A stretch of 64,000 nt of DNA from an uncultured Gemmatimonadales bacterium (lineage in GTDB: Bacteria; Gemmatimonadota; Gemmatimonadetes; JACCXV01; JAHWKZ01): the NCBI GenBank assembly GCA_947259315.1, contig CAMYLR010000003.1, positions 1 through 64,000 on the forward strand, given 5' to 3'. A program made the position numbers and the translations under genes. Position 1 is the first letter of the stretch. The number at the start of each line of letters is the position of its first letter. This document shows, piece by piece, positions 1 to 48,526 of the stretch. Under the pieces are notes generated by a model that saw only the letters and a list, made by a program, of their open reading frames with translations, had not been told where the DNA came from and did not search any database.

Positions 1-687
1 CCGGAGAAGGAGCTACAACAGGCGAAGAATCTCGCCAAAGCAGCAAAACAGGCCGGTGTCAAGCACGTCGTCTGGTCGACGCTCGAGGACACTCGCAACT
101 GGATGTCTCTCGACGATGATCGGATGCCGACCCTGATGGAGAAGTACAAGGTTCCCCACTTCGATGCCAAGGGCGAAGCCGACCAGGAGTTCAAGGAGGC
201 TGGAGTCCCGACGACAAACCTGTTGACGTCATTCTATTGGGACAATTTCATCCATTTCGGGATGGGACCAACCCCGGGCCCTGATGGAGAGCTCGCGATA
301 GTGTTCCCGATGAATGGCGCCAAGCTGCCCGGGATCGCTGCCGAGGACATCGGCAAGTGCGCTCTTGGAATCTTCAAACGCGGTGACGAAATGATCGGCG
401 AGACGATCGGTATCGCGGGTGAGCACCTGACTGGTGATGAGATAGCGACCAAGATGAGTGATGTCCTGGGTAAGAAGATCGTCTACAACTCGGTGTCACC
501 TGAAGTCTATCGCGGGTTCGATTTCGACGGCGCTGACGACCTCGGCAACATGTTCCAGTTCAAGCGCGACTTCAATGCCGACTTTGTCGGTGCACGCGAT
601 CTGTCGCTGGCACGTGAGCTGAACCCAGAGCTAATGGACTTTGACACTTGGCTCGCCGCTAACGCGGATCGAATCCCGGTCGGTTGA
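1..687 (+). CDS. NmrA-like NAD(P)-binding protein (5' end outside window)
   Basis: The frame is open from base 1, so the N-terminus with the usual GxxGxxG nucleotide-binding loop is cut off; an internal ATG at 103 is not the start. The visible part begins with a helix rich in KNLAKAAKQAG followed by VKHVVWSTLED, the typical NmrA/HSCARG pattern in which a strand ends in S/T after 'a-g-v-k-h'. It then has the PTTNLLTSFYWDNF stretch seen in this atypical SDR group. Members bind NADP without clear catalytic activity and often act as redox sensors or regulators. The stop TGA overlaps the ATG of the following OsmC-like gene, so the two are probably co-translated. Family assignment is fairly secure; the role is inferred. 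Confidence 0.75.
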   Translation, partial: PEKELQQAKNLAKAAKQAGVKHVVWSTLEDTRNWMSLDDDRMPTLMEKYKVPHFDAKGEADQEFKEAGVPTTNLLTSFYWDNFIHFGMGPTPGPDGELAIVFPMNGAKLPGIAAEDIGKCALGIFKRGDEMIGETIGIAGEHLTGDEIATKMSDVLGKKIVYNSVSPEVYRGFDFDGADDLGNMFQFKRDFNADFVGARDLSLARELNPELMDFDTWLAANADRIPVG

Positions 688-1151
688 TGGCCGACCCGTT
701 CTATGTTTCGAACGTTGTAGTCAGCAAGGTGGAAGGGGTCCATCGTCGTGCCGAGCTCCCCGCTGAGGGCCGGTTCGACATGGGCGTCCACGGAGCGATC
801 AAGGCACACTACAAGCTCGACACGCCGGATCTGCCGTTGCCGGTCGACTACGTGGTCGCGTCCGCTGTTGGTTGAATGCTGGGAACGTTGAATGGCGCAC
901 TGGAGGTGCGCGGGATTCAGCTCGATGCCGACTCGATCGAGGCCACCGGCCGGGGGACAAACGAGATCGTCGACAAGCTGCCGGTGCTGACGTCGATACA
1001 CATCACGTATCGGCTCCGGATCCCCTCTGGGAGCCGGGAGACGGTCGATCGAGCGCTCGAGCGGCACCAATCGAAGTGTCCGACGGCGGCCACGCTCGCC
1101 AACTCGGTAGCGATCACCTGGGAAGCAGACATCGAGGAGGTCGCGGACTAG
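687..1151 (+). CDS. OsmC/Ohr-family selenoprotein (Sec at in-frame TGA 873-875)
   Basis: Read through the TGA at 873-875, this is a 154-residue OsmC-fold protein. The block DYVVASAVG-U-MLGTLNG (U63) matches the OsmC helix that normally carries the peroxidatic cysteine (as in LLLSALGACMTI of the fusion at 16877). The second conserved cysteine is present as KCPTAATL (C131). OsmC/Ohr proteins reduce organic hydroperoxides through this thiol pair; a selenol would be the attacking group here. Neither half is a complete OsmC domain alone, and the frame continues directly after the TGA. The ATG at 687 overlaps the upstream stop (TGATG); a TTG at 684 is the alternative. A SECIS-like hairpin follows at 895-911. 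NhaA starts 10 bases after the TAG. A sequencing error is possible but unlikely given two other such genes nearby. Confidence 0.9.
895..911 (+). promoter_or_regulatory. SECIS-like hairpin of the OsmC selenoprotein
   Basis: A perfect 6-bp stem GCGCAC/GTGCGC encloses the loop TGGAG. The loop begins 26 nt after the TGA at 873-875 and has G as its second base. This fits the general bacterial SECIS description: short apical loop with an early G, stem of at least 4 bp, roughly 16-37 nt past the UGA. Folding was judged by eye. Confidence 0.65.
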
Positions 1152-1160
1152 GTTCGCCGG

Positions 1161-2534
1161 ATGGTCGCCGCCCCGCACGACACGAACCAGGCTCGGAAGT
1201 TGAGCAGGCTCCGAGCGCGCCAACCGGTAAGATCCACGTTTCGCGAGTTCGTCCACCTCGAAGCGTCCGGCGGCGTCGTCCTGCTGTTCTGCACGATCGC
1301 CGCGTTCGCATGGGCCAACTCCCCCTTCCGAGAGAGCTACTTCGCGCTCTGGCACACACCGATCACGATCGAGTTCGGGTCGTACGTCATCGAGGAGTCG
1401 CTGCTGCATTGGATCAACGACGCCCTGATGGCGATTTTTTTCTTTGTCGTTGGTCTCGAGATCAAGCGCGAGATCCTGGCCGGCGAACTAGCTGAACCTC
1501 GCAAGGCCGCGCTGCCGATCGCGGCGGCGATCGGGGGTATGGTCGTTCCGGCGGCGATCTACGCGGTGTTGAACGCCGGTGGCGAGGGGGCCCGGGGGTG
1601 GGGGATCCCGATGGCCACCGACATCGCGTTTGCGCTCGCGGTGCTGACGGTGCTCGGAAGCAGAGTGCCGACCTCGCTCAAGGTGTTCTTGACCGCGCTG
1701 GCGATCGTCGACGACCTCGGGGCGATCCTCGTCATCGCGATCTTCTACGCCCACGGAGTGAGCTGGAACTGGTTGGGGATCGCCGCTGTTTTCTTGCTCC
1801 TGTGCGTGTTCGCCAACAAGGTCCATGTCCGACACCCGGTGCCGTACGCGCTGCTCGGCTTGGTCGTGTGGTTCGCGTTCTTGCAGTCCGGCGTGCACGC
1901 GACGGTGGCCGGCGTGTTGGTGGCGATGACGATCCCGGTTCGTCGGGCGATCGACAGCCAGCAGTTTCTCGATCGCACAAGGGGGCTTCTGCGTGACTTC
2001 GAGGAGGCATCGGCGTTCAAGTCGGCGCTCTTGGTGAACAGCGGACAGCAGGAAGCACTGCGTGCGCTTGAAGAGGCGTGCGAAAACGTGGAAACGCCGC
2101 TCCAGCGGCTGGAGAACACCCACCATGGGTGGGTCGTCTTCGGCGTTCTTCCGCTGTTTGCACTGGCGAACGCAGGGGTGACGATCGAGGAGAGCCTGCC
2201 GAGCTTGCTCGGCAGTCCCGTGGCGCTGGGCGTTGTTTTGGGTCTGGTCGTCGGAAAGCAGGTCGGCGTCACACTTTTCGCTTGGCTTAGTGTCCGGTTT
2301 GGGTTAGCGGCGATGCCGGAGGAGCTGAGCTGGGGCCAGGTCTACGGGGTGGCGTGGCTGGCGGGTATCGGTTTCACGATGTCGCTGTTTGTTGGAACGC
2401 TCGCTTTTGGCGAAGGCGAGCTTCTGAAGACCGCCAAACTGGCGATCCTGGTCGCGTCGGTCGCGTCGGGTTTGGTGGGTTACCTCATTTTGCGCCGGTT
2501 GTTCGCGGCCAAACCTGAGTTGGCACAAAAGTGA
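1161..2534 (+). CDS. nhaA: Na+/H+ antiporter NhaA
   Basis: The 457-residue protein matches NhaA throughout. Diagnostic blocks are [18 protein letters not shown] (about residues 93-110), [14 protein letters not shown] (149-162), the ion-binding aspartate pair in [11 protein letters not shown] (D184, D185), and late helices with [11 protein letters not shown]. It is predicted to be an inner-membrane protein with about 12 helices that exchanges cytoplasmic Na+ or Li+ for external protons, giving sodium and alkaline-pH tolerance. It is slightly longer than the usual 380-430 residues because of a hydrophilic loop around 265-310 (rich in E and L). The ATG at 1161 lies just after the OsmC stop, and the SDR gene begins inside its stop codon as GTGA, suggesting one transcript. 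Confidence 0.95.
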
Positions 2535-3304
2535 CGAACTCACGTTGGTCGCTGGAGGGTCGCCGTGCCTTGATCACCGGCGGCACGATGGGGATCGGGT
2601 TGGCGATCGCCCGCGAGTTTGTCGACCTGGGGGCGCACGTCGCTCTGGTCGCCAGAGACGAGGAGCGGCTGAAGCAGCGAGTCGATGAGCTCGCAGAACG
2701 AGCACAAGTCGAGGTGCACGGAGTGGCTCTCGACTTGAGCCAAGCGGAGGCTCCAGAGCGATCAAGAGCATGGCTCAGCGATCGATGGGACGGCCTCGAC
2801 GTCCTGGTCAACAACGTCGGAACCAACATCCGAAAACCCGCGCTGAGTTACAATCTCGACGAGTATCGATTACTGCTGGACGCGAATCTCACCAGTTGCT
2901 TCGAGCTCAGCCGGCAGTGCCATCCGCTGTTGCGTGCGGGGACCAAACCGGCGGTTGTCAACATCGCGTCGGTCGCGGGAATGACGCACATGCGGACGGG
3001 CGCACCCTATGCGATGAGCAAAGCCGCGATAATCCAGCTGACGCGGAATCTCGCCTGCGAGTGGGCGGCCGACGGGATCCGCGTCAACTGCATCGCACCC
3101 TGGTACATCGACACGCCGCTTGCCAAGACCGTCCTGCAAGACCCCGATTACCTCGACGAGGTGCTGCAGCGCACACCGCTTGGCCGCATCGGTCAACCGG
3201 AGGAAGTGGCCGCCGCGGCCGCGTTCCTGGCTATGGGGGCGGCTTCGTACATCACCGGGCAATGCGTGGCCGTCGACGGCGGCTTCATGCAGTACGGGTT
3301 CTAG
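2531..3304 (+). CDS. Short-chain dehydrogenase/reductase
   Basis: A classical SDR of 257 residues. The cofactor loop is TGGTMGIG (16-23), followed by NNVG (94-97) and the catalytic set S147, Y160 and K164 in SVAG...YAMSK. The C-terminus has the usual PEEVA and GQCVAVDGG blocks. Overall wording ([27 protein letters not shown]) resembles tropinone-reductase-like SDRs, but bacterial members of that branch have varied or unknown substrates. The GTG start overlaps the nhaA stop, so it is translationally coupled. It should be a soluble NAD(P)H oxidoreductase; the substrate cannot be told from sequence. Confidence 0.9.
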
Positions 3305-3451
3305 AACCCGCTCCACAGCGCTCTACCCCAGTAGGCGATTCTCCCACAACGGTGTCCGCCAGGCACTGACATCGTTCCACGCGTATCCCTGACTGACCTG
3401 CCCAGGGGAGGTCGTCTATCATCATTATGGACGCAAGGCCGAGGAGGCGGC

Positions 3452-4129
3452 GTGCAACAGACGGCTACGTTGACGAGCCCCTCGATACGGGGCCAAACGC
3501 TCGGTCACATATACCGACAGTACTTCGGTTGGTTTGTGGCCGTGGCGGCGGTCGTCCACGTGTTGGTGATCCTGTTCGCGGTCGTTCCGTCGATGGACCG
3601 CGGATTCGCCGCCAGCGGTGACGAGATCGCGGTCATCGACATCCCGCCGGAAACAAAGATCCCGCCGCCGCCCGAAGAGCTGGCTCGACCGGCCACGCCG
3701 GTGATCGCCACCGAGCTCATCGAGGAAGAGATCACGATCGCCGAGACCGAGATCGTCGAGGACGCACCGGTCATACAAACGGCTCCGATGCCGGTCGCGC
3801 CAGAGGTCTCGGAGACGTCGTTTGTCTTTACGCCTTATACGGTAAAGCCAAAGTGCCTGACCGGGTGCACGCCCAAAGAGCTGCTGAGCTTCTACCCGCC
3901 GTTGTCGAAGAAGGCAGGTATCTCATGCGACGTGAAAGTCGGGCTTCGCATCGATCTGTCAGGGAGGGTGACAAACACGATGATTCTCGATTCCAGCGGC
4001 CACCCACCGTGTGATCAGGCCGTGCAAAGGTGGGCCATGAGCACGTCTTGGTCGGTGGCTTACAATCGAGACCAACCGGTCGTTGTCTGGATCGCTCAAC
4101 CGATCAACATCACCGCCAAGCAACCTTGA
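3452..4129 (+). CDS. TonB-family energy-transducer-like protein
   Basis: The 225-residue protein has a short cytoplasmic N-terminus, one membrane helix (about 27-45, FVAVAAVVHVLVILFAVV) and a proline- and acid-rich periplasmic linker (IPPPPEELARPATP). Its C-terminal domain of about 90 residues has the TonB pattern: YPPLSKKAG..., VKVGLRIDLSGRVTNTMILDSSGHPPCDQAVQRW. It contains extra cysteines (KCLTGC, ISCDV, PPCDQ) that may form disulfides. TonB couples the proton gradient to outer-membrane receptors, but no exbB/exbD or receptor gene is adjacent. The start is a GTG at 3452; an ATG in a different frame precedes it. It converges on the LVIVD gene with a single base between stops and no terminator. 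Confidence 0.8.
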   Translation: MQQTATLTSPSIRGQTLGHIYRQYFGWFVAVAAVVHVLVILFAVVPSMDRGFAASGDEIAVIDIPPETKIPPPPEELARPATPVIATELIEEEITIAETEIVEDAPVIQTAPMPVAPEVSETSFVFTPYTVKPKCLTGCTPKELLSFYPPLSKKAGISCDVKVGLRIDLSGRVTNTMILDSSGHPPCDQAVQRWAMSTSWSVAYNRDQPVVVWIAQPINITAKQP

Positions 4130-4130
4130 T

Positions 4131-6107
4131 CTACTCGGCCGGGTACTGAGACCTCGGCTCGCCGGTCAACTCCAGCACCCACAACCCACTCGACATGTCG
4201 GAAACGAAGATCTTCCCTTTGTGGAGCTGGGCCCCGAACGCAAACGCTCGGTTCTCCTTGTAGGCGTCGCTGCTAGCGTCGGTCACGTACAGTGCGACCT
4301 CGCGACCTTGATCGTAGAGGTTGCCACGCGTGTCACCAGTCACGTCGACGACCCGAACACCACCCTGGTAATACGCGCTGTAGAGCTGGCCATCCTCAAC
4401 CCAATGGTTGTGAGCACCTGATTCGGGCACCTCGTAGCGCGAAATCTCGCGCGGGTTCTCGAGGTCGGAAATGTCGACGATGTGGATGTAGCCGCGGGGC
4501 TCGATCGGCTGGGTTATGTCAAACACCGCCGGGAACACTTCGTCACCGACGTAAGCGCGATTCCCGTCCACGTATACGCTATGTGTCCCGCGTGGTCCGC
4601 CGCCGCCCGGTCCGTAGATCGCCGGGGCATCGTACTTGAGTTGCCCGACGAACACCGGGTTGTCGGGGCTGCCGCCCTTGCCTGCGCCGCCGACGTCGAG
4701 AATGATCAAGCCGTCCTGCCAGTAGGCGAGATACGCTATGCCGTCCTCGACGTAGAGATCGTGCAGATAGCGGCCCGGCGTGTCGGTGTGCCACTCGGCG
4801 ACTTCACGCGGGTTCTCAGGATCGCTGACGTTGATGATGTGGAGCGCGCCATCGCCATCGTGCGTGGCGAAAATGTGATCGCCGTCGAAGAACGTGTTGT
4901 GAACGCCGCCCGGTACCGTCTCGGTGTACTCTGATACGATGGTTGGGTGGGCCGGGTCGGAGAGATCGAGAATCGCGATGCCGTTGGCGCGATTGGCCGC
5001 ACCCTCGCGGCTAAAGACACCGAGCGTCGCATCTTCGTTGACCTTGACGTCGAGCACGTAGCGGGCGTCGGTCGTGATGCTGTCGGTCATTACGGGTCGT
5101 GCTGGATCGGTGACATCGAAGACCAGGACCGCGTTCGACTCGGCCGTTCCGAGGTACGCGTAATCGCGTCCGTCGAGGCCAGTGAAAACCCGCAGATCTC
5201 CTGTAAGGCGATCGGCGACTGCACCGCGGCCCACGACCTTGAGATCGCGGCGAACCGAGCGCGGTTCGACGGTGACTACGTGTTCAGCCGTCTTGGTCCC
5301 AAGCACCGCTTCGATGAGATAGGTGCCCGGTTCATCGGCCACGAGCACGCCCTGGCCGTCGATCCACGCCCCGCCGGGTGATACGAACCAGCGTGGGTAG
5401 GTTGCCTCGCCACCGATCGAGAAGCGCCCGACCTGACCGGTCCGAAGCTGCTCTGGCCCGCTGATGGCGATCGCACCCGAAGGTGCTGGTGTCACTTGGA
5501 TCGTGAGGCTCGCCTGGGCGCCCGCGCCCGCTGCCGCCTCGGTCTCGAGCGCAGCCGAAGCCGAGCGATGGCTGGCGCTCACCGTGACCTGGCCCGGTGA
5601 GTGGGTAACCAGGTTGCCGAGCGGATCGATCGTTGCCACCGACGGATCGCTGGTCGACCAGACGAAGTCGCTGACGTCGGCGGCCAAATCGTCGCCGGAA
5701 CGTGTGCGCGCGGTTGCGGTCAGCGGGACCACGCCCCCGGCAGCGACCGTTGCCGGCAGCGGACCGATGTCGACCGACGTCGCCGCAGCCGGCGTCACGA
5801 CGACATTGACGCGAGCGATCGCCCGCGACCCAGCTCGGAAGACGAGCTGGCCCTCGCTCGGTGGACCGCTGGCGAACCGTGTGTTGTCGATCATCTGTCC
5901 CAAGCCCATGCTGGTCACGAAGCCCTGTACTTGTGCGTCCGGGATGACGTTGCCGGACCCGTCGTAGGCGGTAATCGAGAATGAGACGGTATCGCCCGAG
6001 GCAACGGAAACGGTGGTCGGTTGGACCTCGATCCGGGCGACTTCCTGGGCGATTGACGGTGAAACGAGCGCCAAGATTGGCAAAGTGGCGATCAACGAGC
6101 GCATCAT
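4131..6107 (-). CDS. Secreted Ig-like/LVIVD-repeat propeller protein, paralogue 1
   Basis: The 658-residue protein has a signal peptide (about 1-20, cleaved after PSIA), then Ig-like BIG2-type domains (ARIEVQPTTVSVASGDTV..., and a second with SVDIGPLPATVAAGG; WSTSDPSVATIDPLGN is the classic BIG2 signature). The C-terminal 370 residues hold LVIVD repeats such as IAILDLSDPAHPTIVSEY, LHIINVSDPENPREVAEW and IHIVDISDLENPREISRY, which form a beta-propeller. The ATG has a strong GGAGG upstream. Related genes lie at 6897-8792 and 14805-16748. The role is unknown: the architecture is that of an exported binding or scaffold protein, with no catalytic motif seen. Confidence 0.88.
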   Translation of the reverse strand: MMRSLIATLPILALVSPSIAQEVARIEVQPTTVSVASGDTVSFSITAYDGSGNVIPDAQVQGFVTSMGLGQMIDNTRFASGPPSEGQLVFRAGSRAIARVNVVVTPAAATSVDIGPLPATVAAGGVVPLTATARTRSGDDLAADVSDFVWSTSDPSVATIDPLGNLVTHSPGQVTVSASHRSASAALETEAAAGAGAQASLTIQVTPAPSGAIAISGPEQLRTGQVGRFSIGGEATYPRWFVSPGGAWIDGQGVLVADEPGTYLIEAVLGTKTAEHVVTVEPRSVRRDLKVVGRGAVADRLTGDLRVFTGLDGRDYAYLGTAESNAVLVFDVTDPARPVMTDSITTDARYVLDVKVNEDATLGVFSREGAANRANGIAILDLSDPAHPTIVSEYTETVPGGVHNTFFDGDHIFATHDGDGALHIINVSDPENPREVAEWHTDTPGRYLHDLYVEDGIAYLAYWQDGLIILDVGGAGKGGSPDNPVFVGQLKYDAPAIYGPGGGGPRGTHSVYVDGNRAYVGDEVFPAVFDITQPIEPRGYIHIVDISDLENPREISRYEVPESGAHNHWVEDGQLYSAYYQGGVRVVDVTGDTRGNLYDQGREVALYVTDASSDAYKENRAFAFGAQLHKGKIFVSDMSSGLWVLELTGEPRSQYPAE

Positions 6108-6219
6108 TCAGGGCCTCCGCGAGTCATGTTCTGCGCAGCAGGGATTGTGAAAGCGGGCATAACCTATGCGTCTGTTACGGTAACGACGAGCACCACCACG
6201 CTCGTGCTCAACCGATCGC

Positions 6220-6295
6220 TGGGGAGTAGCTCAACTGGCAGAGCGCCGCGCTGTTAACGCGGTGGTTGCAGGTTCGAATCCTGCCTCCCCAGCCA
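6220..6295 (+). tRNA. tRNA-Asn (GTT anticodon), CCA encoded
   Basis: A complete cloverleaf: acceptor stem TGGGGAG (6220-6226) pairs with CTCCCCA (6285-6291), discriminator G6292, then encoded CCA (6293-6295). The D-arm is AGCTC...GAGC. The anticodon stem CCGCG/CGCGG (6246-6250, 6258-6262) encloses the loop CTGTTAA, giving anticodon GTT at 6253-6255. The T-arm contains GGTTCGAATC. The CCA ends one base before the stop codon of the convergent LOG gene. No integrase or repeated tRNA end is nearby, so there is no sign of use as an attachment site. Confidence 0.97.
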
Positions 6296-6296
6296 G

Positions 6297-6872: not shown

Positions 6873-6896
6873 CGAGCGGCGATGGACGATTCGACG

Positions 6897-8792: not shown

Positions 8793-8833
8793 GACGACCT
8801 CCGGTCAATCGATAGGAATGGAAACAAGCGCTG

Positions 8834-9547: not shown

Positions 9548-12207
<2,660 letters not shown>

Positions 12208-34696: not shown

Positions 34697-34726
34697 TGAA
34701 CGACACCTACTAGCTGGTAGCTAGAT

Positions 34727-34760
34727 GGGCTCCTTCCCGCCCCGGGAGGGAGCCCGTTTT
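34727..34760 (+). terminator. Rho-independent terminator after erpA
   Basis: A 13-bp stem (GGGCTCCTTCCCG with CGGGAGGGAGCCC, one G-T pair) and CCC loop, followed by GTTTT. The minus-strand side has no T-run, so it serves erpA; its 3' end touches the stop codon of the convergent peroxiredoxin. Confidence 0.85.
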
Positions 34761-35226
34761 ACATCTCTGCCAGCGCCGCCAGGACTTCCACAGCGTGACC
34801 TTTGACTTTCACTTTGGGAAAGACGCGCGCGATCCGACCCGTCTGGTCGATCACGAACGTGGTGCGCTCGATCCCCTGGCTCTCGCGCCCAAACAGCTTC
34901 CTCGTCTTCCACACACCGTACCGTTCACACACATCGCTCTCGGCGTCGGAAAGTAGCGGGAACGGTAGGCCGAATCTCTTCTGGAAGCGGCGGTGGCTGG
35001 CGAGCGAGTCTTTAGAAACGCCGAGCACGATCGCATCCAGGTTGGTGAAGTCGGGCATCCTGCCCTTGAAGGCGAGCGCCTCCGCCGTTCAACCGGGTGT
35101 CATGTCGCGGGGATAGAAGTACAGCACGACCGGCTTCCCCTCGAGATCCGCGAGCCGAATGTTCTCGTCTTCGGTCGAGGGAAGATCGAAATCTGGTGCC
35201 GGGTCGCCGACCTCGAGCATAGGCAT
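34759..35226 (-). CDS. bcp: Bcp/PrxQ-type peroxiredoxin selenoprotein (Sec at in-frame TGA 35091-35089)
   Basis: Read through one TGA this is a complete 155-residue peroxiredoxin. [23 protein letters not shown] places selenocysteine (U46) at the peroxidatic position of the P-x3-T-x2-C motif; P39 and T43 are in place. The usual PrxQ resolving cysteine five residues later is L51, so it would act without that partner. The rest is typical: [35 protein letters not shown]121 in ERTTFVID and a [15 protein letters not shown] end. A start at internal ATG 35058 would lack the active site. ATG 35226 has AAGGG six bases upstream. A SECIS-like hairpin lies at 35053-35065. It would reduce hydroperoxides in the cytosol. 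Confidence 0.92.
35053..35065 (-). promoter_or_regulatory. SECIS-like hairpin of the peroxiredoxin selenoprotein
   Basis: GGGCA-GGA-TGCCC on the minus strand: a 5-bp perfect stem with GGA loop, the loop starting 29 nt after the TGA and beginning with G. A second possible stem (GGAGGC/GCCTTC, loop GCTC) lies closer, 12 nt from the TGA, at less usual spacing. Confidence 0.6.
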
Positions 35227-35285: not shown

Positions 35286-35945
35286 ATGGTCCGAGTGCGC
35301 CGCCGCCCCGCGTTTCGATCGCTGCTGCTGGCGTTTCTGATAACCGGCGGTTGCGGCCCGGCGGATTCGGTCCGGGAGAACGTCAGCCACGAACTTACCG
35401 CTGAGCTGCGCGGGACACGGCTCGCAAACCCGATCCAAAGGCCCCATTTCTCCCTGATCGACACCGAGGGGGTCGACTTCGACTTCCACGTCCGCACCGA
35501 GGGATACGCGACGCTGCTGTTCTTCGGGTACACCCACTGTCCCGATGTCTGCCCTATTCATATGGCCAACATCGCCGCGGCCCTCGATCGGGTGGGTTGG
35601 CAAACGCGGCGCCGCGTGAAGGTCGTGTTCGTGACTACCGATCCGGATCGCGACACGCCAGAGCGTATTCGGCAGTGGCTCGACCGTTTTGATCCCGCGT
35701 TTGTCGGTCTGCGTGGAAGCATCGAGGAAGTGGCCGCGGTCCAGGAGGAGCTGAACCTGCCGCCGAGCATCATTCCATCTGAACCAGCCACCGGGTATGA
35801 AGTCGGTCATGCCGCGCAGGTGCTCGCTTTCTCGCCATCGGGCACGGCTACCGTGGCGTATCCCTTTGGTACCCGACAGGCTGATTGGGTCCACGATCTG
35901 CCGCTTCTGGTCGCGACCCACGATGAGGAGGCGTTGGCGCACTAA
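35286..35945 (+). CDS. SCO1/SenC-family copper chaperone lipoprotein
   Basis: The 219-residue protein has a lipobox ending ITGGC (C23) and the SCO copper site: C85 and C89 in THCPDVC plus H175 in EVGHAAQV. It is predicted to be anchored to a membrane facing the periplasm and to load copper into the CuA site of cytochrome c oxidase, in keeping with the ctaG gene that follows three bases later. Other blocks: HFSLIDTEG, LLFFGYTHCP, VVFVTTDPDRDTPE. It is divergent from the seleno-peroxiredoxin. Confidence 0.92.
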   Translation: MVRVRRRPAFRSLLLAFLITGGCGPADSVRENVSHELTAELRGTRLANPIQRPHFSLIDTEGVDFDFHVRTEGYATLLFFGYTHCPDVCPIHMANIAAALDRVGWQTRRRVKVVFVTTDPDRDTPERIRQWLDRFDPAFVGLRGSIEEVAAVQEELNLPPSIIPSEPATGYEVGHAAQVLAFSPSGTATVAYPFGTRQADWVHDLPLLVATHDEEALAH

Positions 35946-35947
35946 TC

Positions 35948-36739
35948 GTGCAATGGTGGTGCTCAGCTCAGGGCGTGGCCTGGGACTGGACCTGGCGGCC
36001 TTATGTCGGGGTGTGGGTCGTGGTGCTGCTCATGATGGCGGGCTACGCGAAGCTCGCACGCGACGCCGGCGGCTGGCGCGAAGTTGGTTGGCGCGCGGTC
36101 GCGTTTGTGACCGGTCTGGGTGTCATCTGGGTGGCCCTCGATTGGCCGATCGGCGCTCTGGCGGCGGGCTATCTGGCCAGCGTTCACATGGTGCAGTTCT
36201 TGTTGGTGGGCTTGATCGCCCCGGTGCTGCTTCTGCTCGGTGTTCCCGAGCGCGCCTTTGCGTCGCTCCAGCGCTGGTCCACTCTCCACAGCGTGCTCTC
36301 CCGCGTGACCCAACCGTTGGTGGCGATCGTCGGCTTCAATGCGATCCTGGTGTTCACCCATTGGCCAACGGTGGTCGATGCGCTCATGGGTTCGCAGGCG
36401 GGCTCGTTCACGATCGACATGTTGTGGTTGTTTGGCGGTACGCTCTTCTGGTGGCCGCTGGTGGCCCCGGTGCCGACGCGGCCTGGATTCACCTATCCGC
36501 TCAAGCTCGCCTATCTGATCGCCAACACGATCCTCTCGACGGCGCCGTTTCTCTATCTGACGTTTAGCCAACTGCCGGTCTACGCGACGTACGAGCTAGC
36601 GCCACCGGTGGGGTGGATGACCAAGCAGCAAGACCAACAGTTGGCGGGAATCCTGATGAAAATCGGCGGTGGGCTGATCCTGTGGACGGCGATCACGGTT
36701 CTGTTCTTTCGGTGGTACCGGGCCGAGGGCGAGCCCTAG
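35948..36739 (+). CDS. ctaG: Cytochrome c oxidase assembly protein (caa3-type CtaG)
   Basis: The 263-residue membrane protein has about seven helices. It matches the CtaG_caa3 family: WDWTWRPYVGVWVVVL, SVHMVQFLLVGLIAPVLLLLGVP, NAILVFTHWPTVVD, LWLFGGTLFWWPLVAPVPTRP, and TFSQLPVYATYELAPPVGWM. Several histidines and methionines in the helices suit copper handling. The GTG start lies directly after the SCO1 stop, supporting joint function in oxidase assembly. The oxidase subunits themselves are not in the window. Confidence 0.88.
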   Translation: MQWWCSAQGVAWDWTWRPYVGVWVVVLLMMAGYAKLARDAGGWREVGWRAVAFVTGLGVIWVALDWPIGALAAGYLASVHMVQFLLVGLIAPVLLLLGVPERAFASLQRWSTLHSVLSRVTQPLVAIVGFNAILVFTHWPTVVDALMGSQAGSFTIDMLWLFGGTLFWWPLVAPVPTRPGFTYPLKLAYLIANTILSTAPFLYLTFSQLPVYATYELAPPVGWMTKQQDQQLAGILMKIGGGLILWTAITVLFFRWYRAEGEP

Positions 36740-36782
36740 GAAATCCCACATCGTCGGCTTGTTGCCCCCGATCCGCAGGGCT

Positions 36783-37517: not shown

Positions 37518-37520
37518 AAA

Positions 37521-38300: not shown

Positions 38301-38309
38301 GACGTGGCG

Positions 38310-39824: not shown

Positions 39825-40117
39825 TGGATTTCAACGAGGCCCTGAAAGAGGAAAACCAACGCCTACGGCGTCTTAAGCTGGTGGTCGACTTTACATTAGC
39901 ACGTTTGTACCAGGATCCGGATCTCTCCATGCTCGAGGCGCTGGAACACGTCGAGCGTTGCCGCGAGACAGCGTTGAACCTGTTTCCCGGCAAGGAGCCC
40001 ACGTTCGAGCTCATCATTCGGCCCCGGCTCGAGCGCGCCCTTCGCGGTCGGTGGCCGCATGAAATGCCCGAGGAACTAGGTGAAGAACTCACCGTAAGGG
40101 AACCCGAGAGCTCGTAA
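39824..40117 (+). CDS. Small protein of unknown function
   Basis: The 97-residue acidic and charged protein has no membrane or signal segment. It is mostly helical by look: FNEALKEENQRLRRLKLVVDFTLARLYQDPDLSMLEALEHVERCRETALNLFPG, then FELIIRPRLERALRGRW and an acidic tail. I recognise no family. Start overlaps the pepA stop, and rhomboid follows after 13 bases, so it sits in a packed operon. Confidence 0.65.
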   Translation: MDFNEALKEENQRLRRLKLVVDFTLARLYQDPDLSMLEALEHVERCRETALNLFPGKEPTFELIIRPRLERALRGRWPHEMPEELGEELTVREPESS

Positions 40118-40130
40118 CGACCCTCTCCAG

Positions 40131-40952: not shown

Positions 40953-40953
40953 C

Positions 40954-41766: not shown

Positions 41767-41785
41767 AGATGTCGGTGTTTTTCGC

Positions 41786-42355
41786 GTGAAGTGGGAACGC
41801 ATCGACCGGCATCGAGTCTATTCCGGCCGAGTCGTCGACGTGGCGAGAGACACGATCCGCATCACCACCGGAGACGAAACTAGAAAGACACTATTCGACG
41901 TCGTTCGCCACCCAGGAGCAGCGGCGATCGTACCTCTGTTCGACGATGACACCGTAGCGTTGATCAATCAGTTCCGGTATGCGGTCGGTGAGCGTATCTG
42001 GGAGATCCCGGCTGGCAGTCTCGGGGACGGTGAGTCGTTTGAAGCTTGCGCCGAGCGCGAGTTGGAGGAAGAGGTTGGTTATCGCGCACAACGTTGGACG
42101 CCGCTGGCCGCGTTCTACACGACCCCTGGTTTTTGTGACGAAGAGCTTAGGGTGTTCTTGGCGGAACGACTGATCCCCGGTGCAACCAATCACGAGGACG
42201 ATGAGGACATCGACGTCACGCGCATCCCGTTGCGCCAAGCGCTCGAGTGGGTAACCAGCGGCCAGATCCGGGACGCCAAGTCGATGCTCGGATTGTGGGC
42301 AGCGCGGGACTATCTCCGCACGGTGGACCGCTGGCCGCCGAGTCTCGGAGCTTGA
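41786..42355 (+). CDS. Nudix hydrolase (ADP-ribose pyrophosphatase type)
   Basis: From GTG 41786 it is 189 residues. The Nudix box is GSLGDGESFEACAERELEEEVGY, with the REL-EEEVG metal-binding core in order. The flanking VYSGRVVDVARDTIRI, RHPGAAAIVPLFDDDTVALINQFRYAVGERIWEIPAG and FYTTPGFCDEELRVFLAERL fit the ADP-ribose pyrophosphatase branch. It would hydrolyse ADP-ribose and similar dinucleotides. cutA begins one base after the stop. Confidence 0.92.
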   Translation: MKWERIDRHRVYSGRVVDVARDTIRITTGDETRKTLFDVVRHPGAAAIVPLFDDDTVALINQFRYAVGERIWEIPAGSLGDGESFEACAERELEEEVGYRAQRWTPLAAFYTTPGFCDEELRVFLAERLIPGATNHEDDEDIDVTRIPLRQALEWVTSGQIRDAKSMLGLWAARDYLRTVDRWPPSLGA

Positions 42356-42703
42356 ATGACGGACGTGACGAAATCCGGCGATGATGTTCGATTGGTCATC
42401 ACGACGTGTCCCGACGAGGGGACCGGAGAGGCGATCGTGCGAGCGCTGGTCGAGGAGCGACTCGCCGCCTGCGGCAACATCGTCGCGGGCGTGCGTTCGA
42501 TCTTCCGGTGGCAGGGACGGGTCGACACCGAGGTCGAATGCTTGGTGCTGCTCAAGACTCGTGACTCCCGGCTCGATCAGCTCGCCCGCCGGCTCGATGA
42601 GTTGCACCCTTACGATGTTCCCGAGTTGCTTGCCATGAAGGTCGATCGGGGGGCGATCGCCTATCTCGATTGGGTGGTTGAGGAAACCACGAGCGGCTCT
42701 TAG
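42356..42703 (+). CDS. cutA: Divalent-cation tolerance protein CutA
   Basis: The 115-residue protein is CutA1 by its blocks: VITTCPDEGTGEAIVRALVEERLAACGNIV, SIFRWQGRVDTEVECLVLLKTR, and HPYDVPELLAMKVDRG..YLDWV. CutA is a small trimeric cytosolic protein with ferredoxin-like fold linked to copper tolerance, though its true role remains unclear. It is directly downstream of the Nudix gene and 19 bases ahead of the ParA gene, all in one direction. Confidence 0.95.
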   Translation: MTDVTKSGDDVRLVITTCPDEGTGEAIVRALVEERLAACGNIVAGVRSIFRWQGRVDTEVECLVLLKTRDSRLDQLARRLDELHPYDVPELLAMKVDRGAIAYLDWVVEETTSGS

Positions 42704-42722
42704 GTTCTTTTACCTCAGCCCC

Positions 42723-43508
42723 ATGTCTGGTCAAATCACGCTATTTCGGAATCCGTCAATGCGCCGGATCGCGGTCGTCAACCACAAAGGTGGAACGGGC
42801 AAAACGACCACCGCGGTTCATCTGGCGGCAGGGTTGGCCGATCTAGGTCACCAGGTGTTGCTTCTGGAACTCGATCCGCAGGGCAATGTCGGCACCTGGT
42901 TCGGCATCGACGAACGAGACGCGTGCATGGCGGAGTTTCTGGCTGGTGAGCTGGATGCGTACGATTCGCTGGTCGAGGTGCGCGACAACCTCGACGTGAT
43001 CGCTAGCGATTGGCGGTTGGCCGAAACCGAGGAGCGATTGATTTGGGGGCAAGAGCGGGAGCGCGGCTTGGCCAACCGGCTGGCGAGCATCGAGGATTGC
43101 GAGGAGTACGAGTTTACGATCATTGATTGCGCGCCGTCGATGAGCATGTTGACGACCAGCGCGCTCGCTTACGCGGATGAGGTGATTATACCGATCTCGA
43201 TGGAATACTTAGCTTTGGTTGGAGTGCGACAGATCGTCGAGAATATTTTGCGGATGTCATCGTGGAACGGCAAGGACGTACGGATCGCCGCCGTCGTGCC
43301 CACGTTTTATCGACACAACCTGAGAAAGAGCAAAGAGATTCTGGGCGTGCTACGCAAACACTTCGACAACGCAGTGACCGATCCGATACGCGACAACGTT
43401 CGGCTTTCGGAAGCGCCCAGCCACCAAGAGACAGTGTTCGAGTACGCTCCCCGCTCTCACGGCGCGGTCGATTACCGCAAACTGGTTGATCGGTTCGCCG
43501 GTGCCTAA
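42723..43508 (+). CDS. ParA-family ATPase
   Basis: About 261 residues. Deviant Walker A is HKGGTGKTT (with the signature lysine), Walker A' and B regions are LLLELDPQGNVGTWFG and FTIIDCAPSMSMLTTSALAYADEVIIPI. Other features are VVPTFYRHNLRKSKEILGVL and the end SEAPSHQETVFEYAPRSHGA. Such ATPases position chromosomes, plasmids or protein clusters on the nucleoid. No ParB gene is adjacent; instead it overlaps a TPR protein, so an orphan, cargo-positioning role is conceivable. Start ATG 42723 or 42759. Confidence 0.9.
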   Translation: MSGQITLFRNPSMRRIAVVNHKGGTGKTTTAVHLAAGLADLGHQVLLLELDPQGNVGTWFGIDERDACMAEFLAGELDAYDSLVEVRDNLDVIASDWRLAETEERLIWGQERERGLANRLASIEDCEEYEFTIIDCAPSMSMLTTSALAYADEVIIPISMEYLALVGVRQIVENILRMSSWNGKDVRIAAVVPTFYRHNLRKSKEILGVLRKHFDNAVTDPIRDNVRLSEAPSHQETVFEYAPRSHGAVDYRKLVDRFAGA

Positions 43509-44661
43509 GCGTGACGACCAGATCAAAGGCTCGAGGGTCGGCAGCGATCCTCTCGCAGCGCTCGATCCCGATCGGATCGCTTCCCTGCTCGGTCAGGAGC
43601 CACGGCGGAAAGCGCGACGCAAGAAGGGTGGAGTGTCCGAGCCCGGCAAGCCGTCCAAGCCGGCCCGAAAGCGGTCACGCGCGGTCGTCGAGCCAGAACC
43701 GCCAGAGCTAACGCTGGTTCCAGAGCCGGAACCGGCGCCGCTGGAAAGCGCGTCCGAACCGGAGCCGATCGAGGTTGCACAGCCTGAGCCCGAGCCGATC
43801 GAGGTTACACAGCCTGAGCCCGAGCCGATCGAGGTTGCACAGCCTGAGCCCGAGCCGATCGAGGTTACACAGCCTGAGCCCGAGCCGATCGACGTCGCAC
43901 CCGCTGAACCCGCTGTGGTCGAAGCGCCGTTAGTCGAAGCTCCGCTGGTCGAACCCCCGATCGTCGAGACGCCTACAGCTGACACGTCATTGGTCGAGCC
44001 GCCGATCGTCGAAACCGGGTCCGTTGAAACACCACCAGCCGCGGCGAATGAGGCGACCTTCGCGGTGGTACCCGAAGCCGACCGAGGGACCGATCACGGG
44101 CTCGATGAGCTCTACGCTGCCTTGCGGAGCGATCCCCGTGACGTTGATGCGGCGATCCAGGTCGCCGATCAGCATCTCGAGCGAGGGTTGCACGATCAGG
44201 CGATCGCACAGCTGCTAGAGACGAAGGAGTTCGTTCCGGATTCAGTGGACGCAGCGATCGCGTTGGGCTCGGCCTACTGTCGGGCCGGCATGTACAGCGA
44301 GGCCGAGGCCGAGCTGGCACGGGCTCTCCGGCTCGACCCTGACAGCGCGAGCGGTCATTGTGAGTTGGGGATCGTGCACGGCAAGAAGGGGCTCTACGAA
44401 GCAGCGATCGAACAGCTCGGGCGAGCGCTCGAGTTGAACCCGGAACAGGCTCGTGCGCACTACTACGTGGGAGTTTACCTCAACCATATCGATCGGTTGG
44501 ACGAAGCCGCACAGTCGTTCGAGCGCGCGGTCGAATGCGATCCGGCGCTTGGGCGAGCTTATTACCATCTCGGAATCATCTGGGATCGCAAGGGTCGAAC
44601 CGAACGCGCGAAAGAGATGTACCGGCAAGCGCGCGAAGTCGAGAGCAACGATCGTGGATAG
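43501..44661 (+). CDS. TPR protein with Pro/Glu-rich repeat linker
   Basis: From GTG 43501, overlapping the ParA-gene end, the protein is 386 residues. A basic N-terminus (PRRKARRKKGG) is followed by a proline/glutamate-rich linker with a decapeptide repeat EPIEVxQPEP (88-137) and more P/V/E stretches to about 180. The C-terminal half carries TPR motifs: AAIQVADQHLERGLHDQAIAQLLE, AAIALGSAYCRAGMYSEAEAELARAL, GHCELGIVHGKKGLYEAAIEQLGRAL and two more. No signal or membrane segment. Coupling to ParA suggests the TPR domain could be its partner or cargo adaptor. Confidence 0.85.
   Translation: MPKRDDQIKGSRVGSDPLAALDPDRIASLLGQEPRRKARRKKGGVSEPGKPSKPARKRSRAVVEPEPPELTLVPEPEPAPLESASEPEPIEVAQPEPEPIEVTQPEPEPIEVAQPEPEPIEVTQPEPEPIDVAPAEPAVVEAPLVEAPLVEPPIVETPTADTSLVEPPIVETGSVETPPAAANEATFAVVPEADRGTDHGLDELYAALRSDPRDVDAAIQVADQHLERGLHDQAIAQLLETKEFVPDSVDAAIALGSAYCRAGMYSEAEAELARALRLDPDSASGHCELGIVHGKKGLYEAAIEQLGRALELNPEQARAHYYVGVYLNHIDRLDEAAQSFERAVECDPALGRAYYHLGIIWDRKGRTERAKEMYRQAREVESNDRG
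43762..43911 (+). repeat. 30-bp tandem repeat in the TPR gene
   Basis: Four near-exact 30-base units start at 43762, 43792, 43822 and 43852, with a degenerate fifth at 43882. They alternate GTTGCA and GTTACA, giving a 60-base higher-order period. The unit is a multiple of three, so copy-number change would lengthen the linker without breaking the frame. Confidence 0.9.
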
Positions 44662-45817
44662 CCACCACGGCGACGGTCGCGGGTTTGCGACCAAAGCGAT
44701 CCATGCTGGACAACATCCCGACCCGGTGACCGGGGCGGTTATGACGCCGATCTACCAGACGTCGACGTACGTCCAAGACGGTGTCGGTCGCCACCGCGGG
44801 TACGAGTACGCTCGCACGCACCATCTGACGCGAGCCGCATTGGAGGGTTGTGTGGCGGCGCTTGAGAACGGCAGCCACGGCATCGCCTTCGCCTCCGGCA
44901 CGGCCGCCATCCACGCGGTAATGACCCTGCTCTCGGGGGGTGACCATCTGGTTGCCGGAGAGAACCTCTATGGCGGCACCCACCGGTTGTTCCAGAACGT
45001 GCTCGAACGGTTCGGCCTTTCCTTCGAATACGTCGACACGCGAGATGCATCTGCGGCGGAAGCGGCGATGACCGGCAATACGAAGATGCTGTTTGTCGAG
45101 ACGCCCTCTAACCCGCTGATGCGGATCACGGACCTTGCGGCGATGCGCGAGATCGCTGAGCGTGCGCACTGCATGCTGGTCGTCGACAACACCTTTATGT
45201 CGCCCTTCTTCCAGCGCCCGCTCGAGCTCGGGGCCGACATCGTTGTTCACTCGACGACGAAGTTCCTGAACGGTCACAGCGACATGGTGGGTGGCATCGC
45301 GGTAACCAATGACGACGAGATCGCCGAACAATTGCGATTTCTCCAAAACGCGGTTGGCGCGGTGCCGGGGCCGCTGGACTGTTTTCTGGCTCTCCGCGGA
45401 CTCAAGACGCTGCCTTTGCGGATGGAACGCTCGGAGGCGACGGCGGTCGAGCTGGCCGGTTGGCTAACCGAGCAAGATGCGGTAACAGCGGTTCACTTTC
45501 CCGGCCTGCCCGATCACCCCGAGCACGAGCTCGCCAGGCGACAGATGAGCGGTTTTGGCGGGGTTATCTCGCTCGAGTTTGGCGATGGCGCGGCCGCGCG
45601 GCGATTCCTGGAGGGCCTCGAGATCTTTCAGCTGGCTGAGAGTCTGGGTGGGGTGGAGAGCTTGTGCAGCCATCCCGGCGAGATGACGCACGCCGCTGTC
45701 CCGGTTGAACAGCGAGAGCGGATGGGCCTCGTTGATCATCTGGTTCGACTATCGGTCGGAATCGAGGACCCCGATGATCTGCGATCGGACCTCGAGCAAG
45801 CGCTAACCAAGGTCTGA
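44654..45817 (+). CDS. Transsulfuration-family PLP enzyme (MetB-like)
   Basis: The 387-residue Cys/Met-metabolism PLP enzyme shows FATKAIHAGQHPDPVTGAVMTPIYQTSTY, the tyrosine/arginine pair in GYEYARTHHLTRAALE, SGTAAIHAVMTLL, VVDNTF, and the PLP lysine in HSTTKFLNGHSD. The C-terminal SLGGVESLCSHPGEMTHA is typical. It may be cystathionine gamma-synthase, gamma-lyase or a related sulfhydrylase; MetX at 25635 would supply acetylhomoserine. GTG 44654 overlaps the end of the TPR gene by 8 bases. Confidence 0.9.
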   Translation: MDSHHGDGRGFATKAIHAGQHPDPVTGAVMTPIYQTSTYVQDGVGRHRGYEYARTHHLTRAALEGCVAALENGSHGIAFASGTAAIHAVMTLLSGGDHLVAGENLYGGTHRLFQNVLERFGLSFEYVDTRDASAAEAAMTGNTKMLFVETPSNPLMRITDLAAMREIAERAHCMLVVDNTFMSPFFQRPLELGADIVVHSTTKFLNGHSDMVGGIAVTNDDEIAEQLRFLQNAVGAVPGPLDCFLALRGLKTLPLRMERSEATAVELAGWLTEQDAVTAVHFPGLPDHPEHELARRQMSGFGGVISLEFGDGAAARRFLEGLEIFQLAESLGGVESLCSHPGEMTHAAVPVEQRERMGLVDHLVRLSVGIEDPDDLRSDLEQALTKV

Positions 45818-45824
45818 GCTCAGC

Positions 45825-47126
45825 GTGAAGATCCTCGTCGTCGGAAGTGGCGGGCGCGAGCACGCGCTCATCTGGAAACTCCGACGCGATCACCCCGACT
45901 ACGAATTCCTGGTTACCGGTCGCAGCGGCGGTCTCGACGACGTCGCACGATGCGTGGAGTCGAGTCCTACTGACATCGATGGCTTGGTCGAGACGGCGCA
46001 GCGCGAACGAGTCGGCTTCACCGTCGTCGGCCCCGAGCTACCGCTGGCGGCGGGTCTGGTGGACGCGTTTCGGGAAGCGGGGTTGGCGGTTTTTGGGCCG
46101 ACCCGGGCTGGCGCCCGACTCGAGTCATCGAAGGCGTATGCCAAGCGCCTCATGCAAACCCATGGGATCCCGACAGCGCGCTTCGAGGTCTTTACCGCGA
46201 AGGGACCAGCGACCGCGTTTGCCGACGAGCTGGGAGTGCCGTGCGTGGTCAAAGCGAGCGGGCTCGCCGCTGGCAAGGGTGCGTTGGTGTGCACGACGAC
46301 AGCCGAAGTTGCAGACGCGCTGGCAGCATGTTTCGATCGCCGAGATTTCGGCGCCGCCGGGGACGAAGTCGTCGTCGAGGAGTTTGTGGCCGGCGAGGAA
46401 GCGTCGATGATCGCGCTGACCGATGGACGGGATCTGCTGCCCTTATTGCCGTCCCAGGATCACAAGCGAGCCGCAGACGGCGATCAAGGGCCAAACACGG
46501 GCGGTATGGGCGCGTACGCTCCGGCGACGATGCTCGATGCGTCGCAGCAGGCAGAAATCGTGGAGACCGTTTTTCGGCCGATCCTGGCGGCGCTCGAAGC
46601 TGACGGGGTGGCATTCTCCGGGTGTCTTTACGCCGGGCTCATGCTGACGGCGACGGGTCCGCAGGTGCTCGAGTGGAACGTCCGCTTTGGCGACCCCGAG
46701 GCCCAGGCCCTGTTACCGCTCATCGACACAGATCTGCTCGCGTTGCTGATGGCGGCGACGCCGGGAGGTCGGCTGGGTGAACAAGAGATCGGTTGGCGCG
46801 AGGGCGCCTGCGTGACGGTCGTCGCGGCATCGGTCGGCTACCCGTCCGACCACGAGACCGGCGTGCCGATCGATATCCCACCCGAGCTGGAAGCCGACAA
46901 CGCCTTTGATCGCGACGGTGTGGTGGTGTTCCACGCTGGCACAAGACGTGATGCCGGCGGTTTGATCACCGCCGGTGGTCGGGTGCTCAACGTTACCGCG
47001 GTTGGCGCTGATGTCGGTGCCGCGCGGGAGCGCGTGTACGGCGCGCTGGCGAGGATCGAGAGCCCGGCACTGCGGTGGCGCTCCGACATCGGGTGGCGGG
47101 AGCTCGCGCGAGCGCTCGCCGAGTAA
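45825..47126 (+). CDS. purD: Phosphoribosylamine-glycine ligase
   Basis: The 433-residue ATP-grasp enzyme matches PurD: ILVVGSGGREHALIWKL at the start, VVGPELPLAAGLVDAF, FGPTRAGARLESSKAYAKRLM, VVKASGLAAGKGALVC, and DHKRAADGDQGPNTGGMGAYAP. The metal-binding EWNVRFGDPEAQ follows. It joins glycine to phosphoribosylamine in purine synthesis. GTG start seven bases after the preceding stop, with mutM six bases after its own end, so it appears to be part of one transcript with them. Confidence 0.96.
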   Translation: MKILVVGSGGREHALIWKLRRDHPDYEFLVTGRSGGLDDVARCVESSPTDIDGLVETAQRERVGFTVVGPELPLAAGLVDAFREAGLAVFGPTRAGARLESSKAYAKRLMQTHGIPTARFEVFTAKGPATAFADELGVPCVVKASGLAAGKGALVCTTTAEVADALAACFDRRDFGAAGDEVVVEEFVAGEEASMIALTDGRDLLPLLPSQDHKRAADGDQGPNTGGMGAYAPATMLDASQQAEIVETVFRPILAALEADGVAFSGCLYAGLMLTATGPQVLEWNVRFGDPEAQALLPLIDTDLLALLMAATPGGRLGEQEIGWREGACVTVVAASVGYPSDHETGVPIDIPPELEADNAFDRDGVVVFHAGTRRDAGGLITAGGRVLNVTAVGADVGAARERVYGALARIESPALRWRSDIGWRELARALAE

Positions 47127-47132
47127 CCGTTC

Positions 47133-47969
47133 GTGCCGGAGCTGCCCGAGGTCGAGACGATCGTGCGCCAGCTGGCGAAGGTCCTTCCGGGAAGGCGCGT
47201 CGAACGGGTCCAGATCCTGAGAGACAACATCGTACAAGGTTCGCCGGCGAACCTCACGCGATCACTCGAGGGTGCTGCGATCCGATCGGTTACCCGCCGC
47301 GCGAAGTTCATCGTGGTCGAGCTCGAGAGCGATCGGGTGTGGCTGACGCACTTGAGGATGAGTGGCAGCTACCGGGTGGTGAAGAACGGCGGCGACAACG
47401 ATTCGCTTCCGGTATACACTCGGGCGACGTTCGACCTCGAAGATGGCTCGCGACTGCTTTATGTCGATCCGCGGACTCTTGGCCGACTGGAGATCATTCC
47501 GGCCGTTGATTGGGCCGCGCGTGCCGCCAGACTCGGTCCCGAGCCGCTGAGCCCAGCGTTTACGGCAGCCGTGCTCGAGGATCGGCTGGCCGCCAGCCGT
47601 CAACCGCTCAAGACGTTCCTGCTCGACCAAAGACGGATCGCGGGGCTCGGCAACATTTACGTCGCCGAGGCCTTGTGGCGCGCTCGGTTGAGCCCGCGTC
47701 GACGGGCGAAGAACGTGGGCCCGGTGCGGGCCAGGCGCCTCCACCGTGCGATTGTCGAAGTGCTGTCCGAGGCGGTTGGCGGGTCGGGGACATCGTTGGG
47801 CGGGACGTATCTGAATTTTGCCGACGCCGACGGTGACCGCGGTGATTTTTACGAAGCGCTAAACGTCTACGATCGCGAAGACGAACCCTGTCGTCGGTGC
47901 GGCGGGGCGATCAAACGGATCGTCCAGGCTCAGCGCTCGACGTACTACTGCCCGACCTGCCAGCGTTAG
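47133..47969 (+). CDS. mutM: Formamidopyrimidine-DNA glycosylase
   Basis: The 278-residue repair enzyme has the catalytic N-terminus PELPEVETI (P2 and E3), the lysine in LRMSGSYRVV, RRIAGLGNIYVAEALWRARLSP (helix-two-turn-helix) and a C-terminal zinc finger CRRCGGAIKRIVQAQRSTYYCPTCQR. It excises oxidised purines such as 8-oxoguanine and nicks the strand. GTG start. Its TAG overlaps the TAA of the convergent AhpD-like selenoprotein (TTAG at 47966-47969). Confidence 0.96.
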   Translation: MPELPEVETIVRQLAKVLPGRRVERVQILRDNIVQGSPANLTRSLEGAAIRSVTRRAKFIVVELESDRVWLTHLRMSGSYRVVKNGGDNDSLPVYTRATFDLEDGSRLLYVDPRTLGRLEIIPAVDWAARAARLGPEPLSPAFTAAVLEDRLAASRQPLKTFLLDQRRIAGLGNIYVAEALWRARLSPRRRAKNVGPVRARRLHRAIVEVLSEAVGGSGTSLGGTYLNFADADGDRGDFYEALNVYDREDEPCRRCGGAIKRIVQAQRSTYYCPTCQR

Positions 47970-48526
47970 GCCGTCGGGAGCGGGCAAGCCGCACTTTCCG
48001 AGAAGCCATCGGATTCAACCCCGAGCGCGTGATTGAACCGGGCTCGAAAGTTCTCCCACGCCAAGAAGGCGGTGAGCTCGATGACCTGCTCGTCACTGAA
48101 CTCTTTGGTCACGGCGGTGAATACTTCGTCGCTGACATCCGCCGGTGTGTTTGTCATCGCGTCGGCGAACCGCAGCAGCGCTTTCTCCTGAGCGGAAAAA
48201 GCGTTGGATCGCTCGTAGTCGTGAAGCGCTTCGAGCTGCTCACGGGTAATCCCGACGTCGCTGCTCCCGGCAGCGTTGATGTCGATTCAGAAGGGACACC
48301 CGACGCGCGTCGCGACTCTGAGTACCGCTAACTCCCGCAGATTGACGGGAACCCGACGCGCGCGACGGAGCGCCATTTCCATCTGCCCCACGCCGTATAG
48401 CACCGTTGGGTGGCGCGCGTAGAGCTTGAGCGGCCCGGTTACCTTTCCGTGCCGGCGACGCGAAACCCAAAACGCGAATCGCGCTAGCGGCGAACCGCCG
48501 CGATCAGAGCCGTCGATCCGTGCCAT
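47966..48526 (-). CDS. AhpD/CMD-like selenoprotein with CxxU motif (Sec at in-frame TGA 48289-48287)
   Basis: Read through the TGA this is a complete 186-residue protein of the carboxymuconolactone-decarboxylase/AhpD fold. LRELAVLRVATRVGCPF-U-IDINAAG has C77 and U80, where AhpD-like enzymes have the CxxC redox pair. The second half carries GITREQLEALHDYE, FSAQEKALLRFADAMT, and FSDEQVIELTAFLAWENFRARFNHALG, the usual C-terminal helices. Neither half is complete alone. ATG 48526 follows GGAGGAGAACACG. A well-formed SECIS-like hairpin follows the TGA. Expected role is disulfide or peroxide reduction. It is last in a minus-strand run after arginase and a phosphoesterase and converges on mutM. Confidence 0.92.
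48253..48284 (-). promoter_or_regulatory. SECIS-like hairpin of the AhpD-like selenoprotein
   Basis: Minus strand: upper stem CGCTGC/GCAGCG (6 bp) with loop CGGGA, loop starting 18 nt after the TGA with G as second base. A lower stem CGAC/GTCG is separated by an internal loop (ATCAA/AC). The best of the three candidate SECIS elements. Confidence 0.75.

What the first reader, a model, noticed from the sequence alone, without database searches (positions are those of the whole stretch)
687..48526. Three selenoproteins in 64 kb: an organism with selenium-based peroxide defence
Direct: three unrelated families each have TGA at the catalytic Cys and nowhere else, and each is followed by a hairpin with an early loop G. 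TGA is used as a normal stop by many other genes here (NhaA, the aminotransferase), so a general code change is excluded. All three act on peroxides or disulfides. Inference: the lineage has a full Sec pathway and a sizeable selenoproteome, which would be notable if this is Gemmatimonadota-like. A serine-synthesis set is also present, serine being the precursor on tRNA-Sec.
Basis: partly seen in the sequence, partly recalled or inferred. Interest (0 to 1): 0.85.

Follow-up and report, generated by a model that had tools for sequence, protein, structure and literature searches.

The report
Selenium-based redox genes, Gemmatimonadota bacterium
This bacterium of the phylum Gemmatimonadota very probably reads the stop codon UGA as the selenium amino acid selenocysteine in three peroxide- or disulfide-handling enzymes in this window; the enzyme types are already known, but the trait turns out to be carried by about seven in ten genomes of this little-studied phylum.

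Summary
Confirmed. Three genes carry one in-frame TGA exactly at the catalytic cysteine: an OsmC-like protein (TGA 873, +), a PrxQ/BCP peroxiredoxin (TGA 35091, -) and a CMD/AhpD-like protein (TGA 48289, -). TGA is an ordinary stop for many neighbouring genes. Four more selenoprotein genes (SelD, a UxxC Prx-like protein, two CxxU AhpD-like proteins) give a minimum of seven. The class is that of Gemmatirosa (Gemmatimonadota). selB occurs in 281/394 and selA in 113/150 genomes of the phylum. The OsmC subfamily has a TGA in every listed copy (about 140), with a hairpin kept by compensatory changes. PrxQ became a selenoprotein more than once (one origin rejected, p 0.015); the window's copy is sister to a cysteine form and lacks the resolving cysteine. 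All three enzyme kinds, and selenocysteine in aerobes, are already described, so this is a new member of a known kind. I found no report of the phylum-wide spread in the open literature searched.

The parts
687..1151 (+). OsmC-like selenoprotein, Sec at residue 63 counting from the ATG at 687 (TGA 873-875), second catalytic Cys at residue 131
   Evidence: Pfam OsmC 52.4 bits; TGA in every listed homologue in 89 of 298 phylum genomes, on the catalytic column in all 37 read; second Cys kept in 37 of 37
873..875 (+). TGA read as selenocysteine (OsmC)
895..911 (+). SECIS-like hairpin GCGCACU GGA GGUGCGC of OsmC
   Evidence: pairs kept in 33-34 of 34 distinct sequences with compensatory changes at two pairs, 5 changes on the tree for one pair
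34759..35223 (-). PrxQ/BCP peroxiredoxin, Sec at the peroxidatic position (TPGUT), resolving Cys at +5 replaced by Leu
   Evidence: Pfam AhpC-TSA 136.7 bits; NCBIfam PRK09437 145.5 bits, over the cut-off of 140
35089..35091 (-). TGA read as selenocysteine (PrxQ)
35053..35065 (-). SECIS-like hairpin GGGCA GGA UGCCC of PrxQ
   Evidence: on its own p 0.15
47966..48526 (-). CMD/AhpD-like selenoprotein, motif CPFU (TGA 48289-48287)
   Evidence: Pfam CMD 36.5 bits; best NCBIfam match is a YciW-related (seleno)protein family, 131.7 bits, below its cut-off; a second TGA homologue in another family (L050)
48287..48289 (-). TGA read as selenocysteine (CMD)
48259..48275 (-). SECIS-like hairpin CGCUGC CGGGA GCAGCG of CMD
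   Evidence: p 0.013

Best explanation
The three genes are genuine bacterial selenoprotein genes of a Gemmatimonadota bacterium, probably aerobic, with a complete selenocysteine pathway. SelD makes selenophosphate, SelA converts Ser-tRNA-Sec (UCA) to Sec-tRNA-Sec, and SelB, bound to the hairpin just after the UGA in the mRNA, delivers it at that UGA, while other UGA codons end translation. The selenol then acts as the peroxide- or disulfide-attacking group: in OsmC with its partner cysteine, in the CMD/AhpD-like protein with the cysteine three residues before it, and in PrxQ probably with an outside thiol, since its usual resolving cysteine is gone. Shown here: TGA positions, homology, machinery genes, hairpin covariation for OsmC, Sec/Cys exchange for PrxQ and CMD. 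Inferred: decoding in the cell, peroxide substrates, the reductants.
For: selB, selA, selD, tRNA-Sec UCA in the same 96% complete genome. TGA on the catalytic column in all three. OsmC subfamily: TGA in all listed copies in 89 of 298 genomes. OsmC hairpin: pair 26-34 is A-T in 20 and G-C in 13 of 34 distinct sequences, the 5' side being a third codon position; pair 25-35 is C-G or T-A; at least 5 changes of the first on the tree. PrxQ: 11 of 13 further TGA copies that were fetched, plus L099, have the TGA on the same Cys codon, 13 Sec forms with the window. selA and selB through most of the phylum. Four further selenoproteins in the genome.
Against: No proteomic or expression data. For PrxQ and CMD the window is the only genome of its own family seen with the TGA; the PrxQ hairpin alone is not significant against synonymous recoding.
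Confidence: 0.96

Rival explanations
1. Nonsense mutations or sequencing errors: the three genes are pseudogenes or mis-assembled.
For: The PrxQ and CMD TGA forms were not seen in the nearest relative: G177, same family, has a Cys PrxQ and no CMD relative at the threshold.
Against: Three unrelated genes hit at the one catalytic codon and nowhere else; reading frame and codon use intact on both sides; OsmC TGA in all listed copies across the phylum; Sec machinery present.
Confidence: 0.02
2. A general code change (TGA read as Cys or Trp everywhere).
For: None found.
Against: 14 of 44 principal genes of the window, NhaA included, end in TGA; tRNA-Sec and SelB explain site-specific reading.
Confidence: 0.01
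3. The proteins are selenoproteins but not all serve peroxide defence; the CMD and OsmC members may act on other substrates or as disulfide carriers.
For: CMD-family members are biochemically mixed and no substrate can be read from sequence (general knowledge); NCBIfam names the closest CMD relative only 'YciW-related (seleno)protein'.
Against: PrxQ is over the cut-off of a thiol-peroxidase family; OsmC keeps both catalytic positions.
Confidence: 0.3

Closest known systems
Bacterial selenoprotein families Prx (COG1225), OsmC-like and CMD/AhpD-like of the Sargasso Sea selenoproteome (PMC1088965; listed again in the review PMC13188914)
   Same: Same families, TGA at the catalytic Cys, CxxU in CMD/AhpD, TxxU in Prx, hairpin with loop G just downstream
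   Different: OsmC motif here is UxxG (U[ML]LGTLNGALE), not the UxxT listed
NCBIfam NF041052 OsmC-related (seleno)protein and NF053654 YciW-related (seleno)protein
   Same: Nearest curated (seleno)protein models
   Different: Both matches fall well below the curated cut-offs (26.6 against 95; 131.7 against 310), so these look like separate subfamilies
E. coli BCP/PrxQ-type thiol peroxidase (NCBIfam PRK09437)
   Same: Over the family cut-off, TPG(C/U)T signature
   Different: Sec for the peroxidatic Cys and no resolving Cys at +5

Membership tests
Bacterial Sec-encoding organism | selA, selB, selD and tRNA-Sec (UCA) in the genome | tested here: met
Bacterial selenoprotein gene | in-frame TGA aligned with a conserved catalytic Cys | tested here: met
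   all three genes
Bacterial selenoprotein gene | SECIS hairpin with small apical loop holding G, shortly after the TGA | tested here: met
   covariation shown for OsmC only; PrxQ hairpin alone p 0.15
Bacterial selenoprotein gene | TGA actually decoded as Sec | not testable with these tools
   needs proteomics or a reporter
PrxQ/BCP peroxiredoxin (PRK09437) | score over the curated cut-off | tested here: met
   145.5 against 140
PrxQ/BCP, two-thiol type | resolving Cys five residues after the peroxidatic residue | tested here: not met
   Leu in the window; Cys in all 30 Cys-form relatives and in 10 of 13 Sec forms
NCBIfam OsmC_like_Se (NF041052) | score over the curated cut-off | tested here: not met
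   26.6 against 95; it is an OsmC-family selenoprotein, not of that model
NCBIfam GroundWater_YciW (NF053654) | score over the curated cut-off | tested here: not met
   131.7 against 310

The most novel reading that the evidence does not exclude
Gemmatimonadota are an overlooked selenocysteine-using phylum (about 70-75% of genomes) with an OsmC subfamily that exists there only in the selenocysteine form, and with PrxQ genes that repeatedly swapped Cys for Sec and then sometimes lost the resolving cysteine, giving natural replicates of a change from a two-thiol to a one-selenol peroxidase.
Probability: 0.5. Interest if true: 0.6.

Novelty: new member of a known kind. Interest (0 to 1): 0.45.

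Why it matters
Annotation that treats every TGA as a stop cuts these genes short, so the phylum's redox enzymes would be under-described. A 2026 review (PMC13188914) says that aerobic bacteria rarely retain selenoproteins, while a survey of 5,207 genomes (PMC5029168) found aerobes and anaerobes about equally among Sec users. A phylum with a wide Sec trait, at least one member of which has cytochrome oxidase assembly genes, is a test case. The repeated Cys-to-Sec exchanges in PrxQ, with the resolving cysteine absent in 3 of 13 Sec forms and 0 of 30 Cys forms, let one ask what selenium buys an enzyme.

Tried and rejected
Rfam at gathering thresholds found only a tRNA in the window, so no curated SECIS family helps. 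A first motif filter (C..U, U..C, U..T/S at high GC3) missed all three genes and was replaced by a coding score on both sides. The only scan of named genomes, made with SelB, found only distant relatives (best full-length 39%), so the phylum was named through Gemmatirosa instead. P0001 has no relative in plasmid records; P0002 only distant ones. Two of the PrxQ copies flagged with TGA have Cys at the catalytic codon and the TGA elsewhere (L114, L116), so stop counts alone overstate Sec forms. Serine biosynthesis as support was rejected: serine is made or taken up by every cell.

Full report
Observation. The window holds three genes with a single in-frame TGA at the catalytic cysteine. The OsmC-like gene (687-1151, +) has it at 873; the frame before and after is coding-like. 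The CMD/AhpD-like gene (48526-47966, -) has it at 48289 in CPFU. The third, not placed in the finding, is a PrxQ peroxiredoxin (35223-34759, -), TGA at 35091 in TPGUT. Pfam gives OsmC 52 bits, CMD 36.5 bits and AhpC-TSA 137 bits. TGA is a normal stop in 14 of 44 principal genes here, NhaA and the aminotransferase included.

Machinery. The window is bases 1-64000 of contig 3 of a 2.40 Mb, 33-contig, 96% complete genome. It has full-length selB (372 bits), selA (472 bits), selD (366 bits) and tRNA-Sec with anticodon UCA (75 bits). They lie on other contigs (C4, C6, C24). selD carries its own in-frame TGA (CAGUASK). selU is not found.

More selenoproteins. Family searches of the genome found a Prx-like protein with UPYC (C31:1405) and two AhpD-like proteins with CHYU (C31:85461 and C19:123137), each with a hairpin of six or seven pairs after the TGA; the two AhpD-like ones are over the TIGR01926 cut-off. 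With SelD that makes at least seven. A scan of 440 kb by coding score and hairpin brought up the three window genes among its seven best and no other that I found credible, so three in 64 kb looks like a local concentration and not the genome's average.

Who it is. One genome of the same class, G080, has a 1.106 Mb contig whose tested 5 kb is 100% identical to NZ_CP007129.1, a plasmid of Gemmatirosa kalamazoonensis. The window thus comes from the class of Gemmatirosa, in Gemmatimonadota (that Gemmatirosa belongs there is general knowledge). selB at E<=1e-60 is in 281 of 394 genomes of the phylum and selA in 113 of 150. The listed members of genus code g15 (4-5 Mb genomes, some single contigs, perhaps Gemmatimonas itself; inference) lack both, which may be why early surveys missed the trait.

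OsmC. In 298 genomes, 89 have relatives of the window OsmC; every listed place (about 140, two groups of paralogues) has a TGA. In 37 loci read in detail it is always on the catalytic column, in U[ML]LGTLNG or U..GTFGG-like motifs, and the second cysteine is kept in all. The hairpin GCGCAC-U-GGA-G-GUGCGC is kept in 33 of 34 distinct sequences. Where the second half has GTG (Val) the paired third base of an upstream codon is A; where it has GCG or GCA (Ala) that base is G (20 A-T, 13 G-C, 1 unpaired). At least five such changes are needed on the protein tree. A silent base that follows its partner in this way is the strongest evidence of a functional SECIS here.

PrxQ. Relatives occur in 170 of 298 genomes, mostly with Cys; thirteen of the copies read, window included, have TGA on the peroxidatic codon. 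The window copy is sister to the Cys form of G177, the same family (99/83), within a clade otherwise all Cys; the other Sec forms are in family f4 and most share another hairpin (CCCUC-GGUUC-GAGGG type). Holding all Sec forms as one clade is rejected (AU p 0.015). The window copy lacks the resolving cysteine at +5 (Leu), as do two other Sec forms (Ser, Val), whereas all 30 Cys forms keep it. I infer that selenium came first and then freed the enzyme from its internal thiol partner; the sample is small and not corrected for kinship.

CMD. Only 4 of 298 genomes have a relative at E<=1e-20; two distant ones have CxxC, and one (L050, family f6) has a TGA at the matching place followed by a hairpin, though its upstream part is out of frame. 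Horizontal arrival is possible but untested.

Strength of the hairpins alone. Against synonymous recoding, p is 0.026 (OsmC), 0.15 (PrxQ), 0.013 (CMD). The early loop G is thus a supporting detail, not proof.

What is known. Prx, OsmC-like and CMD/AhpD-like selenoproteins were described from the Sargasso Sea in 2005 (PMC1088965) and are listed in the 2026 review (PMC13188914). A survey of 5,207 genomes found Sec users among aerobes and anaerobes alike; its main text does not mention Gemmatimonadetes (PMC5029168). Searches for Gemmatimonad* with selenocysteine or selenoprotein gave no paper whose title or abstract start treats the trait in this phylum; most of those papers were not read and most subscription journals are not held. 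The window's OsmC and CMD fall below the cut-offs of the nearest curated (seleno)protein models, so they are new subfamily members of known kinds.

Verdict. Real, well supported, mechanistically ordinary; interesting chiefly for its phylum-wide reach and the PrxQ replicates.

Noticed in passing
G000 C6:214406-215329 (L016): selD is itself a selenoprotein gene (CAGUASK); upstream in the same direction are a RidA-like gene and what looks by eye like formate-tetrahydrofolate ligase.
   Followed up: partly
G000 C31:1405-1842, C31:85461-85601, C19:123137-123289 (L156, L160, L166): Three further TGA-containing redox genes: a UxxC Prx-like protein and two CxxU AhpD-like proteins.
   Followed up: partly
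G080 C4:455802-457133: In the Gemmatirosa kalamazoonensis genome selA lies on a 1.04 Mb contig, probably one of its megaplasmids (not checked), so part of the Sec pathway may be plasmid-borne there.
   Followed up: no
genus code g15, family f4: Listed members (for example G019, G039, G074) lack both selA and selB although many relatives in their family have them: looks like a loss of the whole trait.
   Followed up: no
L050 (G117 C115:4904-5218): CMD homologue with TGA and hairpin whose upstream part is not in the same frame: frameshift, decay or assembly error.
   Followed up: no
window 35286-36739: SCO1/SenC and Caa3_CtaG genes next to the PrxQ gene on the opposite strand: cytochrome oxidase assembly genes, pointing to aerobic respiration.
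   Followed up: partly
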